Shown here one piece after another: positions 4,627 through 38,788 of a DNA stretch of 64,000 nt. Source of the stretch: Streptomyces triculaminicus (lineage in GTDB: Bacteria > Actinomycetota > Actinomycetes > Streptomycetales > Streptomycetaceae); the NCBI RefSeq assembly GCF_017349075.1, contig NZ_JAFMOF010000005.1, positions 248,001-312,000 of the forward strand, given 5' to 3'. The number at the start of each line of letters is the position of its first letter. The first letter of the stretch is position 1. Position numbers and translations under genes: made by a program. Below the pieces are notes generated by a model. The model was given only the letters and a program-made list of their open reading frames with translations, was not told where the DNA came from and made no database searches.

Positions 4627-5496
4627 ATGACGCATGCCGTGAAGGCGCCCGACAGCGGCGCGAAGAACCCCAAGTCGCTGTACGGCGGAACGAGCTCTCG
4701 ACGCATCACCGTCCGTGACATCGCCGCCGCCAAGGAGCGCGGCGAGAAGTGGCCCATGCTCACCGCCTACGACGCGATGACCGCCTCCGTCTTCGACGAG
4801 GCCGGCATCCCCGTCATGCTCGTGGGCGACTCCATGGGCAACTGTCACCTCGGCTACGAGTCCACGGTGCCCGTCACCATGGACGAGATCACCCTTCTGT
4901 CGGCCGCCGTCGTACGGGGCACCCGGCGCGCCCTGGTCGTCGGCGACCTGCCCTTCGGCTCGTACCAGGAGGGCCCGGTGCAGGCGCTGCGCAGCGCCAC
5001 CCGGCTGGTGAAGGAGGCGGGCGTCGGCGCGGTCAAGCTGGAGGGCGGCGAGCGGTCGGCCCACCAGATCGAGCTGCTGGTCCAGGCCGGCATCCCGGTC
5101 ATGGCGCACATCGGCCTGACCCCCCAGTCCGTCAACGCCTACGGCGGCTACCCCGTGCAGGGGCGCGGCGAGGAGGCGGCGGCACAGCTGCTGCGCGACG
5201 CCAAGGCCGTCCAGGACGCGGGCGCCTTCGCGGTCGTGCTGGAGCTGGTCCCGGCGGAGCTGGCCGCCGAGGTCACCCGCGTGCTGCACATCCCCACGGT
5301 GGGCATCGGCGCCGGCGCCGAGTGCGACGCCCAGGTGCTGGTGTGGACCGACATGGCCGGCATGACGGACGGCCGGGTGCCGCGCTTCGTCAAGCAGTAC
5401 GCACGGCTGCGCGAGGCGCTGGGCGACGCGGCCAAGGCGTTCGCGGAGGACGTCGTCGGCGGGGCGTACCCGGCCGAGGAGCACTCCTTCCACTGA
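4627..5496 (+). CDS. panB: 3-methyl-2-oxobutanoate hydroxymethyltransferase (PanB)
   Basis: 289 residues. First step of pantothenate and coenzyme A synthesis: transfers a hydroxymethyl group from 5,10-methylene-THF to alpha-ketoisovalerate to give ketopantoate, in the cytoplasm. Clear PanB landmarks: P-M-L-T-A-Y-D near the start, V-G-D-S-M-G-N with the Mg-binding aspartate, K-L-E-G-G, M-A-H-I-G-L-T-P-Q and the P-T-V-G-I-G-A-G active-site segment. Of two near ATGs (4621 and 4627) the second is preferred because AGGAG ends eight bases before it, against two bases for the first. It stands alone, divergent from the MFS-TetR operon, and is followed by a GC-rich hairpin. Confidence 0.96.
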   Translation: MTHAVKAPDSGAKNPKSLYGGTSSRRITVRDIAAAKERGEKWPMLTAYDAMTASVFDEAGIPVMLVGDSMGNCHLGYESTVPVTMDEITLLSAAVVRGTRRALVVGDLPFGSYQEGPVQALRSATRLVKEAGVGAVKLEGGERSAHQIELLVQAGIPVMAHIGLTPQSVNAYGGYPVQGRGEEAAAQLLRDAKAVQDAGAFAVVLELVPAELAAEVTRVLHIPTVGIGAGAECDAQVLVWTDMAGMTDGRVPRFVKQYARLREALGDAAKAFAEDVVGGAYPAEEHSFH

Positions 5497-5514
5497 TCCG
5501 CCCCGTGGGGACCG

Positions 5515-5538
5515 GGCGCCGGCCGGCCCGCCGGCGCC
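5515..5538 (+). terminator. GC-rich hairpin after panB
   Basis: GGCGCCGG (5515-5522) and CCGGCGCC (5531-5538) form an 8-bp perfect stem with an 8-base loop, 18 bases after the panB stop codon. There is no T-tract, as is common for Streptomyces terminators. Confidence 0.45.
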
Positions 5539-5539
5539 G

Positions 5540-5611
5540 TGTCGGCGGCCTGTCGGCGCTCTGTCGGCGCCCGGCCCCCACCGCCGGAAAATTGTCGACG
5601 CGGTGTCGGCG
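5540..5611 (+). promoter_or_regulatory. 11-bp-spaced direct repeats TGTCGGCG upstream of ABC exporter (candidate SARP operator)
   Basis: TGTCGGCG occurs at 5540-5547, 5551-5558 and 5562-5569, each exactly 11 bases apart. A second pair, TGTCGACG at 5593-5600 and TGTCGGCG at 5604-5611, is again 11 bases apart. Eight bases after the last repeat comes CACCGT (5620-5625), a possible -10 element seven bases before the ATG at 5633. Heptamer repeats in 11-bp register ending 8 bp before the -10 is the known architecture of promoters activated by SARP regulators. A SARP-type gene lies convergently downstream. The binding itself is inferred. Confidence 0.5.
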
Positions 5612-5632
5612 GGGGCTGGCACCGTAGTCGGC

Positions 5633-6661
5633 ATGACGCGAAAAGACATCCCGGCACGCGGCGGGAACGCCGTCGAAGTCCGGGGCCTGGTCAAGCACTT
5701 CGGCGAGACGAAGGCCCTGGACGGAGTCGACCTGGACGTACGCGAGGGCACCGTCCTCGGTGTCCTCGGCCCCAACGGCGCGGGCAAGACCACCCTGGTG
5801 CGCTGCCTGTCCACCCTCATCCGGCCGGACGCGGGCACCGCCCGCGTCGCCGGCTACGACGTGGTGCGCCAGCCCCGGCAGCTGCGCCGGGTCATCGGGC
5901 TCACCGGCCAGTACGCCTCCGTCGACGAGAAGCTCTCCGGCCGCGAGAACCTCTACATGATCGGGCGGCTGCTCGACCTCTCCCGCAAGGACGCCCGGCG
6001 GCGGGCGGACGAGATGCTGGAGCGCTTCTCCCTGACCGAGGCCGCCAAGCGGCCCGCCATGAACTACTCCGGCGGCATGCGCCGCCGCCTCGACCTGGCC
6101 GCCTCCATGATCGGCCGGCCCTCCGTGCTCTATCTGGACGAGCCCACCACCGGCCTCGACCCCCGCACCCGCAACGAGGTGTGGGAGGAGGTGCAGCGGA
6201 TGGTCGGCGAGGGCACCACCGTCCTGCTGACCACGCAGTACATGGAGGAGGCCGAGCAGCTCGCCCACGAGCTGACGGTCGTCGACCGCGGCCGGGTGAT
6301 CGCCGGCGGCCGCGTCGACGAGCTGAAGGCCAAGGTCGGCGGGCGCACCCTGCAGGTCCGCCCGGCGGACCCGGCGGACCTGCACCGGCTGGCCGCGGAG
6401 GTCACCCGCGCCGGGCTGGACGGCATCGCCGGCGCCACCGCCGACGCGACGGAGGGCGTGGTCAACGTCCCGATCGTCAGCGACGAGCAGCTGACCGCCG
6501 TGGTGGGCCTGCTGGGCGAGCGCGGCTTCGCCCTCGCCGGGATCAGCACCCACCTGCCCAGCCTCGACGAGGTCTTCCTCGCCGTCACGGGCCAGAAGAC
6601 GTCCGCCCCGAGCGAGGCACAGGACACCCGCACCGACGAGTTCCAGGAGGTCGCGGCATGA
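5633..6661 (+). CDS. ABC transporter ATP-binding protein, DrrA-like
   Basis: 342 residues; ATPase of a two-component exporter of the daunorubicin-resistance (DrrA) type, working at the inner face of the membrane with the permease encoded next. Motifs in order: Walker A G-P-N-G-A-G-K-T-T (about 46-54), Q-loop T-G-Q-Y-A-S-V-D, signature Y-S-G-G-M-R-R-R, Walker B V-L-Y-L-D-E-P-T-T-G-L-D, and T-T-Q-Y-M-E-E-A-E where the switch histidine is replaced by glutamine, as usual in DrrA proteins. A C-terminal accessory domain follows. The ATG at 5633 is chosen because it starts the conserved region; no Shine-Dalgarno is seen, so leaderless initiation is possible. Its stop overlaps the permease start (ATGA). 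The substrate, presumably a hydrophobic drug or a self-made metabolite, is unknown. Confidence 0.9.
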   Translation: MTRKDIPARGGNAVEVRGLVKHFGETKALDGVDLDVREGTVLGVLGPNGAGKTTLVRCLSTLIRPDAGTARVAGYDVVRQPRQLRRVIGLTGQYASVDEKLSGRENLYMIGRLLDLSRKDARRRADEMLERFSLTEAAKRPAMNYSGGMRRRLDLAASMIGRPSVLYLDEPTTGLDPRTRNEVWEEVQRMVGEGTTVLLTTQYMEEAEQLAHELTVVDRGRVIAGGRVDELKAKVGGRTLQVRPADPADLHRLAAEVTRAGLDGIAGATADATEGVVNVPIVSDEQLTAVVGLLGERGFALAGISTHLPSLDEVFLAVTGQKTSAPSEAQDTRTDEFQEVAA

Positions 6662-35583: not shown

Positions 35584-35926
35584 GCCCTGGGCCCTGACCC
35601 TGCTCCGGGCGAGGCATCATAGAGACGCGCACTGCCTGGTGGACCGACCGCCGGGCAGTGCGTGCAGGATCTGTTCGGGCCGGGCGCTTCCGCGCGCGGC
35701 GGGCGGACGGGGCGGCCTCTCCGCCAAGCATCTTGCATTTATGCGCGAATCGCGCCCGTCGGCAATTCGGAATTCGCCTGAGCCGGACTCCAGAATTCCG
35801 CCGGCTGCACGTTCGGAACGGTAATCGGAGGGGCTCAACTTCACTTCTGTGAAAAGGATTGACCCTGCCCACGCGGCACTGCTACCACAAAGGGCATCGA
35901 TTCTTCCGCAGATGAGGAGTGGCGAT
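35584..35926. other. intergenic stretch of lower GC, no gene seen
   Basis: 343 bases between the SOD-like gene and the S-G-R-P gene. From about 35740 it is markedly richer in A and T than the surroundings, with two GAATTC-containing segments about 30 bases apart. I see no convincing small gene, RNA or terminator; the composition change hints at the edge of acquired DNA or a promoter region. Confidence 0.4.
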
Positions 35927-36850
35927 ATGCTGCGCATCGATGTCAGCATTTTCTCCGGCCGTCCCGACCCGTCCTGGATCATCACCGACGAGAGTGTGGT
36001 GAGAAATCTGTTGTCGGATGTGGCCGATGCGGCGGAAGAGGCGGTGGGGATACCGGGAGCGGGGTACGACGGCCTGGGATACCGCGAAGTCGTGGTCTCC
36101 GCCGTCAGCGACGACGAGCCCTGGCCGGAGTCCGTACCCCGCAGTTTCTCCCTGGGCACCCTGGGCGCCCGCAACCCGGGCCGCTCGGCCGAGCTGGCCC
36201 GCCACGTCGTGGAGGGCATGACCCGCCACACGGACACGCGGCTGGCCGAGCACGAACAGACCCCGCTCGACGACGGGCTGCGCGAGCTGGTGCTCGGCGA
36301 GATCGACGCCTTCGCGGCCGAACCGCCGGCCTGGACCCGCTCCCCGGCGCTCCCCGCGCACCCGCTGCGAACGACCGCCCGGGAAATCGAACCGGCCGCC
36401 ACCTGTTACATCGAATTCGGCCAGTTCAACCCCGGCTTCTGGAACACCCCACAAGTCCAGCCGCGCAACAACTGCTACAACTACGCGCGCAACATACGCA
36501 CCGACACCTTCGCCCAGCCCGGCCGGGCGCACAGCGCCCAGACCGGGACCATGGCCTGCCCGAACGTCACCAACGCCGCCCTCGCCGACGGTTTCGTCCG
36601 CCGCTTCCAATGCCTGCCGGACAGCGAGAAACCCCGCTGGCTCACAGCGCTTGTCATCTGGCCGGGCTACGACTTCCACTGGTACCGGCTCCAGAGCGGC
36701 AATTTCTGGGGCCACAAGCCCGGCTCGACGCCGGCCCGGGACTACGACAACAGCGGCAACCGGATCACCAACCCGGAAACGTGCAACCGCGGAAATTACC
36801 GCGACTTCTGCGGCTACTTCTACGCCGGACGCTCGGTCGTCATCAGGTGA
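35927..36850 (+). CDS. S-G-R-P-motif protein with putative Cys/His hydrolase domain, unknown function
   Basis: 307 residues, not a family I can name. N-terminal domain (about 1-110): M-L-R-I-D-V-S-I-F-S-G-R-P-D-P-S-W, then L-G-Y-R-E-V-V-V-S-A. The same pattern opens the next gene. The C-terminal domain (about 165-307) has a clustered set of conserved-looking residues: N-N-C-Y-N-Y-A, then W-P-G-Y-D-F-H-W-Y-R and W-G-H-K-P-G-S-T-P-A-R-D-Y-D-N-S-G-N, with a final C-G-Y-F-Y-A-G. A cysteine at a helix start followed by a histidine strand and Asp suggests a papain-like (NlpC/transglutaminase-like) fold; this is inference. No signal peptide. GAGGAGTGG precedes the ATG at 35927; an in-frame ATG 26 codons upstream lacks one. 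Lower GC than its neighbours. Confidence 0.75.
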   Translation: MLRIDVSIFSGRPDPSWIITDESVVRNLLSDVADAAEEAVGIPGAGYDGLGYREVVVSAVSDDEPWPESVPRSFSLGTLGARNPGRSAELARHVVEGMTRHTDTRLAEHEQTPLDDGLRELVLGEIDAFAAEPPAWTRSPALPAHPLRTTAREIEPAATCYIEFGQFNPGFWNTPQVQPRNNCYNYARNIRTDTFAQPGRAHSAQTGTMACPNVTNAALADGFVRRFQCLPDSEKPRWLTALVIWPGYDFHWYRLQSGNFWGHKPGSTPARDYDNSGNRITNPETCNRGNYRDFCGYFYAGRSVVIR

Positions 36851-36898
36851 CCGGGCCGGCCGTCGTCAGCCGAAGCCGAGCGGAGTAAAAAGAGACCG

Positions 36899-37234
36899 AT
36901 GCTGGTGGAACTGGACCTCTTCAGCGGCCGCCCCGCCCCTCGCTGGCGCCTCGACCCCGGCGCCGCCGAGGAGTTCCGCACGCTCACGGCCGCCCTCCCA
37001 CCGGCCGGCACGGCATCCCGGCCCCGGACGCCGGGGCTGGGCTACCGCGGCTTCATCGTCACGGACGGCGACAAGGTGACCCGCGTCTTCGCCGGCCACG
37101 TCACCGAGGGCACCACACCCCGGGCCGACCCGGACAGAACCCTGGAACACTGGCTCCTCTCCCGCCTCCCACCCCTCCACCACCTCCGCCCCATGGTGAC
37201 CGCGGCCCTCGCCGAGAACGACCGGGACGGCTGA
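36899..37234 (+). CDS. small S-G-R-P-motif protein, unknown function
   Basis: 111 residues: M-L-V-E-L-D-L-F-S-G-R-P-A-P-R-W-R-L, then P-G-L-G-Y-R-G-F-I-V. It corresponds to the N-terminal domain of the preceding protein alone (same order: hydrophobic strand, S-G-R-P-x-P-x-W, acidic helix, G-L-G-Y-R, strand). The ATG has GGAG 13 bases upstream and AGAG six bases upstream. Only 48 bases after the larger gene, so they probably form one operon and may act as partners. Confidence 0.7.
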   Translation: MLVELDLFSGRPAPRWRLDPGAAEEFRTLTAALPPAGTASRPRTPGLGYRGFIVTDGDKVTRVFAGHVTEGTTPRADPDRTLEHWLLSRLPPLHHLRPMVTAALAENDRDG

Positions 37235-37347: not shown

Positions 37348-37668
37348 ATGTCGACGCCACGAACGACGGAACTCCCCGACATCCCGCGCACCATCGGCGG
37401 GATCGCTGCCGCTCTCGAAACGCACTGGCAGGACAAGTTCTGGGACGACGTACGTCGTATCCACGACGGGATCTCGGCCCGCATGACCATCGACGACTGG
37501 TGGCGGCAGGCCGTCATCGACACCGCCGGCGAAGACACTGTCAGGCGCGCCACGCTTGAGGACGCCGCCGATCTGCATCTGATCGAGCTCGCCAAAGCCG
37601 ACAGCGACGGCATCACCATGAGTCACGATGAGGCCATGGCCGTCTACGAGCAGACGCAGGTGTCGTGA
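37348..37668 (+). CDS. antitoxin of type II toxin-antitoxin system
   Basis: 106 residues, acidic, start M-S-T-P-R-T-T-E-L-P-D-I-P. The N-terminal part should bind DNA and the C-terminal helix the toxin (A-D-S-D-G-I-T-M-S-H-D-E-A-M-A). No classic RHH or Phd motif is obvious, so assignment rests on position: it overlaps the RelE-like gene by four bases (GTGA). Confidence 0.7.
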   Translation: MSTPRTTELPDIPRTIGGIAAALETHWQDKFWDDVRRIHDGISARMTIDDWWRQAVIDTAGEDTVRRATLEDAADLHLIELAKADSDGITMSHDEAMAVYEQTQVS

Positions 37669-37922
37669 GGTACACGCTGATCTGGGCCAACGACACCGCC
37701 CGCAAGCTGCGGGAACTGCGTCAGCGCGACGGGAATGCGGTCAAGCCGTTCCACGACGCCATCAACGGCCTCGTCCGCGACCCCCGCCCGTCGGCCGCTG
37801 TGCGCATGGGCGGGACGACCTCCTATCGACTGCACATCGGGAAGTACCGGGCCCTGTACGAAATCAGCGACAGCAAAGTGTCCGTGACGGTGCTGATGAT
37901 CGGCAACACCCCGGTCCGATGA
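37665..37922 (+). CDS. type II toxin, RelE/ParE family
   Basis: 85 residues. Y-T-L-I-W-A-N-D-T-A-R-K-L-R-E-L at the start, R-M-G-G-T-T-S-Y-R-L-H-I-G-K-Y-R-A-L-Y-E-I in the middle and V-L-M-I-G-N-T at the end form the RelE/ParE pattern. RelE toxins cut mRNA in the ribosome, ParE toxins poison gyrase; which applies is not clear. GTG start overlaps the antitoxin stop. Confidence 0.88.
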   Translation: MRYTLIWANDTARKLRELRQRDGNAVKPFHDAINGLVRDPRPSAAVRMGGTTSYRLHIGKYRALYEISDSKVSVTVLMIGNTPVR

Positions 37923-38370: not shown

Positions 38371-38788
38371 CGGACGAGTCGGCCTGTACGCCGGGTTCTG
38401 TCTCCCGGTCCCCTCGCGGGGGCCGGGGAGGCGGCCATCCATCTAGGCCTGCCGTTGCCGACAGGCTCGTGCGGTCTACCCGCGGACTCGGGCGGGCAGC
38501 CCTCGATCGTCCGCGCAGGGTTGTCGCCGTGAAGCGACCGCCCCTCTTGACCTTGCTCCGGGTGGGGTTTACCTAGCCGTCCGAGTCACCTCGGACGCTG
38601 GTGGTCTCTTACACCACCGTTTCACCCTTACCGGGAATCCGAAGATCCCCGGCGGTCTGTTTTCTGTGGCACTGTCCCGCGGGTCACCCCGGGTGGGCGT
38701 TACCCACCACCCTGCCGTGTGGAGCCCGGACGTTCCTCGAAGGACCGGTGAAGGTCCCTCGCGGCCGCCCGGCCGGCTCGTCCGCCGT
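38371..38788 (-). ncRNA. rnpB: RNase P RNA, bacterial type A
   Basis: Catalytic RNA that matures the 5' ends of tRNAs. Reading the minus strand, the 5' end C-G-G-A-C-G-A-G pairs with the 3' end C-T-C-G-T-C-C-G (positions about 38777-38784 and 38371-38378) as helix P1. The universally conserved GAGGAAcGTCCGGGCTCC block is near 38725, GGTAAGGGTGAAACGGTGGTGTAAGAGACC (CRII/CRIII region) at about 38600-38640, and the ACAGAACCC block near the 3' end at about 38395. Length of about 415 nt fits actinobacteria. Ends are estimated by pairing. A TAACAT -10 at 38796-38801 with a TTCGCC 17 bases upstream is the likely promoter. Confidence 0.93.

What the first reader, a model, noticed from the sequence alone, without database searches (positions are those of the whole stretch)
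35927..37234. Two adjacent proteins sharing an uncharacterised S-G-R-P-x-P-x-W domain, one fused to a putative Cys/His hydrolase
Seen: both start with hydrophobic strand-S-G-R-P-x-P-x-W and later L-G-Y-R; the larger adds a domain with N-N-C-Y-N-Y-A, D-F-H-W-Y-R and W-G-H-K-P-G-S-T. They lie 48 bases apart in a lower-GC patch beside a toxin-antitoxin pair. I cannot name the family. Inference: a small domain that recognises or inhibits, paired with an effector enzyme (possible immunity-toxin or regulator-peptidase pair). This is the best candidate here for an undescribed system.
Basis: partly seen in the sequence, partly recalled or inferred. Interest (0 to 1): 0.72.

Follow-up and report, generated by a model that had tools for sequence, protein, structure and literature searches.

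The report
Cysteine peptidase with paired inhibitor
Two neighbouring Streptomyces genes appear to encode an undescribed protein-cutting enzyme and a separate small protein, related to the enzyme's own first domain, that probably keeps it switched off; the same pair is found side by side in about ten bacterial phyla.

Summary
The large (35927-36850, 307 aa) and small protein (36899-37234, 111 aa) share one N-terminal domain (profile E 1.9e-24); no family library names either. The large protein's C-terminal domain is predicted (pLDDT 92.8) to fold like papain/NlpC-type cysteine peptidases, with Cys183, His251 and His263 invariant in 82 of 82 aligned sequences. Relatives occur in about eleven phyla. 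A separate small gene is found in 60 of 80 fetched loci, in 57 just downstream. In 32 whole genomes 27 of 28 small-gene hits lie beside a large gene, and the two genes' trees mirror each other. Three enzymes without the fused N-domain still have the small gene beside them. Neighbours include other proteases with inhibitors: subtilase plus propeptide-like protein (five loci), papain-family protease plus chagasin (one), serpin (one). Best reading: a new cysteine-peptidase family controlled by a homologue of its own N-domain, like SpeB-Spi; in cyanobacteria and myxobacteria the inhibitor is exported. Catalysis, inhibition and toxicity are inferred, not shown. The enzyme's export route is unknown; nearby contractile-injection clusters in two genomes are only a lead, since pair-bearing Streptomyces are not enriched for sheath genes.

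The parts
35927..36850 (+). Large gene (307 aa, stop included): shared N-domain fused to a papain-like C-terminal domain
   Evidence: ORF and homologues starting at the same Met; AlphaFold pLDDT 92.8, pTM 0.89
35927..36319 (+). N-domain of the large protein (residues about 1-131), SGRPxPxW ... LGYR
   Evidence: homologous to the small protein, hhalign E 1.9e-24; structure
36371..36847 (+). C-domain (residues about 149-307), predicted papain/NlpC-like cysteine peptidase fold
36473..36475 (+). Codon of Cys183, predicted nucleophile at a helix N-terminus
   Evidence: invariant in 82 of 82 (the search pattern favours it); helix 183-188
36677..36679 (+). Codon of His251, predicted catalytic His in strand 249-256
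   Evidence: invariant in 82 of 82
36713..36715 (+). Codon of His263, predicted third catalytic residue, 12 residues after His251
   Evidence: invariant in 82 of 82; same spacing as His291/His303 of YkfC and in 5 of 8 NlpC/P60 domains read in the same genome
36899..37234 (+). Small gene (111 aa, stop included): stand-alone copy of the N-domain, predicted trans-acting inhibitor
   Evidence: small gene beside the large one in 60 of 80 loci
35914..35919 (+). GAGGAG, ribosome-binding-like sequence of the large gene
   Evidence: sequence
36882..36885 (+). GGAG, ribosome-binding-like sequence of the small gene
   Evidence: sequence

Best explanation
The large gene encodes a cysteine peptidase (or closely related hydrolase) of papain-like fold, with Cys183, His251 and His263 as catalytic residues (inferred from fold, invariance and spacing). 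Its N-terminal domain packs on the enzyme domain and restrains it in cis (inferred). The small gene encodes a stand-alone homologue of that N-domain, split from it by one old duplication, which binds the enzyme in trans and inhibits it (inferred), as the propeptide-like protein Spi does for the protease SpeB. The pair behaves as one inherited unit (shown by computation). In cyanobacteria, myxobacteria and several others the inhibitor carries a signal peptide, lipobox or membrane anchor while the fused enzyme has none (read from sequence); there the inhibitor probably guards the cell envelope against enzyme that is released or injected by a route other than Sec (inferred). In the window's Streptomyces both proteins lack a signal and probably meet in the cytoplasm.
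For: Shared N-domain. Papain-like topology: the best VIA rows for residues 142-303 are NlpC/P60, MepS, Tse1/Tae1, Tae3, then Josephins and ComA. Invariant C183/D249/H251/H263 in 82 of 82. His-His spacing of 12 as in YkfC and in 5 of 8 own-genome NlpC/P60 domains. Pairing: 60 of 80 loci, 59 on the same strand, 57 within 400 nt downstream; 27 of 28 small hits in 32 genomes beside a large gene. Mirror trees r 0.73 (60 pairs) and 0.68 (38 non-redundant), 0 of 2000 permutations as high. Small and fused N-domains form two clades with 4 misplaced of 137, support 0.92. Three large genes have the C-domain without a fused N-domain, yet with the small gene directly downstream: L093, L101 and L127; in L127 both proteins start with a signal-peptide-like stretch. 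Guilt by association: subtilase plus propeptide-like small protein in five loci, C1 protease plus chagasin directly after the pair in L071, serpin 241 nt upstream in L095, proteins with a metzincin-like motif in eight actinobacterial loci. SpeB-Spi precedent (passages).
Against: No activity or binding is shown. Fold matches are weak: best Foldseek E 0.61 against the PDB and best VIA Z 3.9 at rmsd 4.4. Profile comparison with NlpC/P60 gives probability 0.3. In 17 of 80 loci no small gene was detected, one of them (L070) at a contig end. The phage relative P0005 has neither the fused N-domain nor a recognisable small partner. An exported inhibitor with a signal-less enzyme needs an unknown export route, and the sheath-gene test showed no enrichment in pair-bearing Streptomyces. 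The small protein shows no recognisable inhibitor fold.
Confidence: 0.6

Rival explanations
1. Inter-microbial effector and immunity protein. The large protein is delivered without a signal peptide (contractile injection, lysis or another non-Sec route) into neighbours and cuts protein or peptidoglycan. The small protein, placed in the envelope in diderms, protects the producer. This elaborates the best explanation rather than opposing it.
For: Small protein exported or anchored in 20 of 60 loci, 10 of 10 cyanobacterial and 4 of 4 myxobacterial ones with it (my reading of the N-termini), while in four of those cyanobacteria the enzyme has no room for a signal. Patchy, horizontally moved distribution, with an alphaproteobacterial group nested in actinobacteria. 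Contractile-sheath genes within 10 kb in 2 of 35 genomes, about 0.14 expected, Poisson P 0.009, noticed after the fact. T6SS amidases Tse1 and Tae3 are among the fold matches.
Against: Sheath genes were not found in 9 of 35 pair-bearing genomes. In Streptomyces 6 of 9 pair-bearing genomes have them against 193 of 295 overall, so no enrichment. Strong conservation (C-domains 48-71% identical to the window's outside Streptomyces) is unlike what I recall of toxin-immunity pairs. The small protein lacks a signal in most Actinobacteria and in the Sphingomonas group.
Confidence: 0.28
2. The N-domain is not an inhibitor but a binding or targeting module (for a surface, substrate or secretion particle). 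The small protein is an adaptor or decoy that uses the same binding surface, and the enzyme is regulated otherwise.
For: The N-domain stands at the start of nearly all large proteins (77 of 81 by motif), and its SGRPxPxW/LGYRG core is conserved in both forms, as expected of a shared binding surface.
Against: L093, L101 and L127 keep the small protein although their enzymes have no N-domain. Neighbouring proteases are accompanied by known or propeptide-like inhibitors.
Confidence: 0.15
3. The enzyme is a peptidoglycan or peptidoglycan-fragment hydrolase of NlpC/P60 type rather than a protease, with the same inhibitor arrangement.
For: NlpC/P60 enzymes head the VIA list. Cys-His-His with His-12-His as in YkfC.
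Against: No profile similarity to NlpC/P60. The recurrent neighbours are proteases and protease inhibitors. No signal peptide in the window's protein.
Confidence: 0.2
4. Type II toxin-antitoxin pair acting inside the producing cell.
For: Adjacent two-gene layout, beside a ParE-like toxin gene in the window.
Against: The small gene lies downstream, is exported in 20 of 60 loci, has no antitoxin match, and shares a domain with its partner.
Confidence: 0.04

Closest known systems
SpeB-Spi (streptococcal C10 cysteine protease and its propeptide-like inhibitor)
   Same: Cysteine-peptidase gene beside a small gene for an analogue of the enzyme's own N-terminal domain (PMC2873492, passages; Kagawa et al. 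2005 seen only as a citation there)
   Different: Different enzyme family and different N-domain family (no Pfam match); enzyme lacks a signal peptide; N-domain and small protein diverged once, long ago; pair seen in about ten phyla
NlpC/P60 family (PF00877)
   Same: Papain-like topology in the prediction, Cys at a helix N-terminus, two His 12 residues apart
   Different: No profile match and hhalign probability 0.3; other invariant motifs (NNCYNYA, FAQPG, DYHWYR, WxHKPG); longer Cys-His spacing (68)
DUF7689 (PF24738)
   Same: NC-x-x-x-A followed by ...H...G-x-W-x-S-K-x-G (compared by eye); a phage homologue of the C-domain hits DUF7689 at E 0.029
   Different: Below the family cut-off; 0 of 60 members match; second His replaced by Ser in L119 and L120; function also unknown (no paper found)
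Staphopain-staphostatin and Bacteroides fragilis C10 protease-Bfi pairs
   Same: Protease gene next to a co-transcribed inhibitor gene; Bacteroides inhibitors predicted periplasmic or membrane-bound (passages)
   Different: Those inhibitors are staphostatin-like and not homologous to the enzyme's propeptide
Stand-alone subtilisin propeptide-like inhibitors (I9), e.g. SUB1-ProM
   Same: Small separate protein mimicking a protease's N-terminal propeptide, gene adjacent to protease genes, inhibits the protease (PMC6993865, passages)
   Different: Serine proteases; the pair here has its own unrelated domain, although propeptide-like proteins occur near it in five loci

Membership tests
NlpC/P60 cysteine peptidase (PF00877) | profile match to the family | tested here: not met
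   no hit at E up to 10; not among the families hit by 60 homologues; hhalign probability 0.3 against eight own-genome domains
NlpC/P60 cysteine peptidase (PF00877) | Cys at helix N-terminus, His and third polar residue 12 apart on adjacent strands | tested here: met
   geometry not inspected in coordinates
NlpC/P60 cysteine peptidase (PF00877) | papain-like fold | tested here: inconclusive
   VIA Z 3.9, rmsd 4.4, 103 aligned to 4xcm; Foldseek not significant
NlpC/P60 cysteine peptidase (PF00877) | gamma-D-Glu-diamino acid or peptidoglycan hydrolysis | not testable with these tools
   needs enzymology
DUF7689 (PF24738) | match above the curated cut-off | tested here: not met
   0 of 60 members; phage relative 15.5 bits against cut-off 22.6
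DUF7689 (PF24738) | shared superfamily by profile comparison | tested here: inconclusive
   hhalign probability 1.6; hmmsearch against only three members, best E 4.7e-5
Peptidase plus propeptide-like inhibitor pair (SpeB-Spi kind) | inhibitor gene adjacent to the peptidase gene | tested here: met
   57 of 80 loci within 400 nt downstream
Peptidase plus propeptide-like inhibitor pair (SpeB-Spi kind) | small protein homologous to the enzyme's N-terminal domain | tested here: met
Peptidase plus propeptide-like inhibitor pair (SpeB-Spi kind) | enzyme secreted by a signal peptide | tested here: not met
   fused enzymes start with the N-domain; exceptions without the N-domain: L127 and the phage protein
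Peptidase plus propeptide-like inhibitor pair (SpeB-Spi kind) | inhibition in trans and removal of the N-domain on activation | not testable with these tools
   needs binding and activity assays
Effector-immunity pair of a secretion system | immunity protein located where the effector acts | tested here: inconclusive
   exported in 20 of 60, not in most Actinobacteria
Effector-immunity pair of a secretion system | link to a secretion or injection apparatus | tested here: inconclusive
   two of 35 genomes within 10 kb but no enrichment in Streptomyces
Type II toxin-antitoxin | cytosolic antitoxin | tested here: inconclusive
   the window's small protein has no signal; relatives are exported in 20 of 60 loci
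Chagasin I42 | profile match of the small protein | tested here: not met
   in contrast the chagasin in L071 gives E 5e-21

The most novel reading that the evidence does not exclude
A modular, undescribed conflict or self-digestion system shared across bacterial phyla, in which proteases of several catalytic classes (the new papain-like family, subtilases, C1 papain-family, metzincin-like and trypsin-like enzymes), mostly without a Sec signal, are encoded beside dedicated inhibitors that are often exported. The proteases act outside the producer's cytoplasm by a non-classical route, possibly contractile injection particles, and the inhibitors are the immunity proteins. The window's pair is its most widespread module.
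Probability: 0.2. Interest if true: 0.82.

Novelty: new variant of a known kind. Interest (0 to 1): 0.62.

Why it matters
It offers two unnamed protein families with a testable biochemical relation: a papain-like enzyme whose domain stays about 50-70% identical between phyla, and an inhibitor candidate derived from the enzyme's own N-domain. If confirmed it adds an enzyme family and an inhibitor family, and a case where the inhibitor rather than the protease is exported, which would point to a non-classical protease delivery route. The neighbouring subtilase/propeptide-like and papain/chagasin pairs suggest a broader protease-inhibitor cassette logic in environmental bacteria.

Tried and rejected
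Family libraries gave nothing for either protein; for the homologues Pfam and NCBIfam gave only scattered stray hits or none, and PDB sequence searches gave nothing credible. Foldseek against the PDB gave no significant match for either model. The VIA rows for the small protein (a thioesterase-like protein at Z 5.1, arylamine N-acetyltransferases, Mago, KwaB) were not taken as relatives because Z is low. The class-wide search with A4 found only the own genome (1 of 296) and the cyanobacterial phylum search only two known ones (2 of 292); in both only part of the first-look candidates was scored, so these are lower bounds. The profile comparison with NlpC/P60 failed. The injection-system idea was tested by prevalence and gave no enrichment: 193 of 295 Streptomyces have a sheath gene; of the nine pair-bearing ones six do (G000, G018, G048, G162, G241, G262) and G001, G050 and G105 do not. 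The eCIS toxin papers were read by term search only, and no passage shown described this family. Rows dropped before counts: G124 and G160, G167, G242 (weak, partial); L103 (virus contig, frameshifted) from the pair counts; of 172 confirmed genome loci only the best 80 were fetched; 7 of 143 neighbour ORFs before (overlapping or small-partner ORFs and one for length). A lax hmmsearch that flagged 81 of 81 large ORFs for the N-domain (E up to 1, no filters) was replaced by the motif count; the weak residual scores of L093, L101 and L127 fall inside the C-domain itself, not upstream of it. The idea that the region before the C-domain in L127 is a LamG-type domain rests on its look only; no PDB sequence matched it.

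Full report
Observation. The window is part of a Streptomyces genome: G000, contig C9 (genus judged from the close named relatives). Their shared N-terminal domain is real: pairwise score z 6.1 against shuffles and profile-profile E 1.9e-24. No model in Pfam, NCBIfam, PHROGs or PADLOC names either protein. Of 60 aligned large proteins none matches an NCBIfam model, and Pfam gives only stray hits at E 0.02 or worse in one or two members each. Of 36 aligned small proteins one gave a single stray Pfam hit.

Distribution. In 295 sampled Streptomyces genomes ten have a match to the large protein, one of them weak and set aside. A scan of one genome per species (84,980 species by the tool's description) confirmed 172 loci, of which the best 80 were fetched; one more came from virus contigs. 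By their record titles they span Actinobacteria, Cyanobacteria, Alpha-, Beta- and Gammaproteobacteria, Myxococcota, Verrucomicrobia, Acidobacteria, Nitrospira, Gemmatimonadota, Planctomycetes (Fimbriiglobus, Brocadia), Bacteroidota and WOR-3, about eleven phyla; the small gene was seen in ten of them. The C-domain tree puts a Caulobacter/Sphingomonas group inside Actinobacteria, which indicates horizontal transfer. The family is rare per genome (1 of 296 in the class sample; 2 of 292 Cyanobacteria; both lower bounds).

Enzyme domain. AlphaFold with 60 sequences gives pLDDT 92.8 and pTM 0.89. The high pTM suggests a defined packing of the two domains; this is an inference, as coordinates could not be inspected. 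Cys183 begins a helix, His251 lies in one strand and His263 in the next. In 82 of 82 aligned sequences (window, 80 loci, one phage protein) Cys183, Asp249, His251 and His263 are invariant. The search patterns contained NNCY and RT-x-x-FA-x-PG, so the invariance of Cys183 is partly built in; that of the two His is not. The second look at PDB matches aligns residues about 142-303 with papain-like enzymes only weakly (best Z 3.9), but consistently: NlpC/P60, MepS, Tse1/Tae1, Tae3, Josephins, ComA. YkfC has Cys238-His291-His303, the same 12-residue His spacing (PMC2954226, passages). Five of eight NlpC/P60 domains read in the window's own genome show it too. Sequence profiles do not connect the families (probability 0.3). 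DUF7689 shares a similar Cys/His/Trp-Lys-Gly pattern without reaching significance. Predicted viral proteins F2Y2U4, M1HB16 and one of Hokovirus match the model (E 1.5e-11 to 2.7e-4).

Pairing. A separate small ORF with the N-domain occurs in 60 of 80 loci, 59 on the same strand and 57 within 400 nt downstream. Three of the other 20 also have one by other searches: L048 (opposite strand) and L074, L084. That leaves 17 of 80 without, one of them (L070) with only 248 bases held downstream. In 32 whole genomes 28 N-domain-only hits were found and 27 lie beside a large gene; the exception is a 33-residue fragment. Large genes without a small one (for example L078, L085, L090, L098, L099, L102) keep the fused N-domain. 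Small and fused N-domains separate into two clades (4 of 137 misplaced, support 0.92). Their histories run parallel: patristic distances of small and C-domain trees correlate at 0.73 (60 pairs) and 0.68 (38 non-redundant), never reached in 2000 permutations. Three large genes lack the fused N-domain but have the small gene directly downstream: L093 (Bacteroidota), L101 (gammaproteobacterium, truncated at a contig edge) and L127, a second-type copy in the Corallococcus genome G602. In L127 the enzyme domain follows a signal-peptide-like start and another domain, and the small protein also has a signal-like start, so there enzyme and partner would share a compartment. These cases suggest that the small protein serves the enzyme domain itself. 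Against this, the phage relative P0005 has neither N-domain nor a recognisable small partner.

Location. The fused large proteins start directly with the N-domain; in four cyanobacteria (L042, L060, L071, L072) a stop codon lies two codons before the start, so no signal peptide is possible. The small proteins of all ten cyanobacterial and all four myxobacterial loci that have one carry a signal, lipobox or membrane anchor, as do six more loci (L047, L049, L050, L076, L093, L101) and, among unnamed Streptomyces, G050 and G105. The other Actinobacteria, the Sphingomonas group and single loci of other phyla lack it. Signal calls rest on hydropathy and motif reading, not on a dedicated predictor.

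Neighbours. Among 136 neighbouring ORFs from 42 loci (of 143 listed) the protein family hit most often is the subtilase family, 5 members. Six loci have one: L049, L050, L060, L067, L073, L074. Subtilases number 348 in 26 of these genomes (197.9 Mb), which predicts about 0.3 within 3 kb of the pair in 26 genomes; at least three are seen in the printed part (G589, G593, G598). In five loci a protein of 75 to about 100 residues with a subtilisin-propeptide pattern accompanies the subtilase; in L073 it lies after the small gene instead. The profile's best PDB matches are Tk-subtilisin propeptides, at weak E-values (0.016 and up), and Pfam gives nothing. In L060 the order is large, subtilase, propeptide-like, small. 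In L071 the pair is followed by a C1 papain-family protease and a chagasin inhibitor (Pfam E 3.5e-12 and 5e-21; PDB chagasin E 6.6e-8). L095 has a serpin upstream (PDB serpins E down to 1.6e-86). Eight actinobacterial loci have proteins with a metzincin-like HExxHxxNxxH motif. A phage protein carries a signal-like start, a trypsin-like domain and this C-domain. Inhibitors thus sit beside proteases in the same places where the small protein sits beside the large one. That is the main reason for calling the small protein an inhibitor.

Precedent. SpeB and staphopain genes lie next to their specific inhibitors; Spi is a propeptide analogue (PMC2873492, passages). Stand-alone propeptide-like inhibitors of subtilases are known (PMC6993865, passages). 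Chagasins inhibit papain-like proteases (PMC7863939, passages).

Delivery. Since the fused enzyme lacks a signal, a non-Sec route is needed where the inhibitor is exported. Contractile sheath genes match in 26 of 35 pair-bearing genomes (24 over the cut-off) and lie within 10 kb of the pair in two (about 0.14 genomes expected, P 0.009; noticed after the fact). In Citricoccus (L125) sheath, tube and baseplate genes are confirmed by Pfam, with a weak trypsin-like match between them and the pair. But 193 of 295 Streptomyces have sheath genes, and six of nine pair-bearing ones do, so there is no enrichment. This stays a lead.

Verdict. The pair is a real, unnamed, widely shared two-gene module. 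The best reading is a papain-like cysteine peptidase with a cognate inhibitor derived from its own N-domain. Predicted fold, invariance, pairing and co-inheritance are shown by computation; catalysis, inhibition, the target and any toxicity are inferred. That it is not in print rests only on the searches in open-access papers; none of them searched for the motifs themselves.

Noticed in passing
window 38371-38780, minus strand: Bacterial RNase P class A RNA, E 1.3e-95.
   Followed up: yes
window 37348-37922: Two-gene toxin-antitoxin-like unit; the second gene matches ParE_toxin above cut-off, the first matches nothing. No relative in the 81 fetched loci.
   Followed up: yes
L106:3264-5462 and 5477-6295 (Anaeroplasmataceae phage): Phage gene shortly downstream of a holin encodes a signal-like start, a trypsin-like domain and the C-domain, followed by a lipoprotein-like gene without the N-domain.
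   Followed up: partly
L082:6457-6699, L088:6330-6683, L100:6895-7140 (Corallococcus, Citreicoccus): Tat-signal-like proteins of about 80 aa next to the large gene that resemble only the C-terminal helix part of the small protein (by eye).
   Followed up: no
L055:6920-9124, L061:7447-9309, L065, L078, L081, L087, L029, L048: Family of 620-820-residue proteins with HExxHxxNxxH motif beside the pair in Actinobacteria; those scanned (L029, L055, L061, L078) have no Pfam assignment above cut-off.
   Followed up: partly
L125:7402-19901 and L124:12347-14160: Contractile-injection genes (sheath and tube; baseplate in L125) 4-10 kb from the pair in Citricoccus and in G018.
   Followed up: partly
BFVD F2Y2U4, M1HB16, A0A1V0SF80: Viral proteins, one of Hokovirus, whose predicted structures match the C-domain.
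   Followed up: no
L036:5555 onward (Pseudarthrobacter): N-domain of the large gene is in another frame than its C-domain: frameshift in genome or assembly.
   Followed up: no
L050:6964-7725: DUF6345 protein after a subtilase next to the large gene in Nocardia.
   Followed up: no
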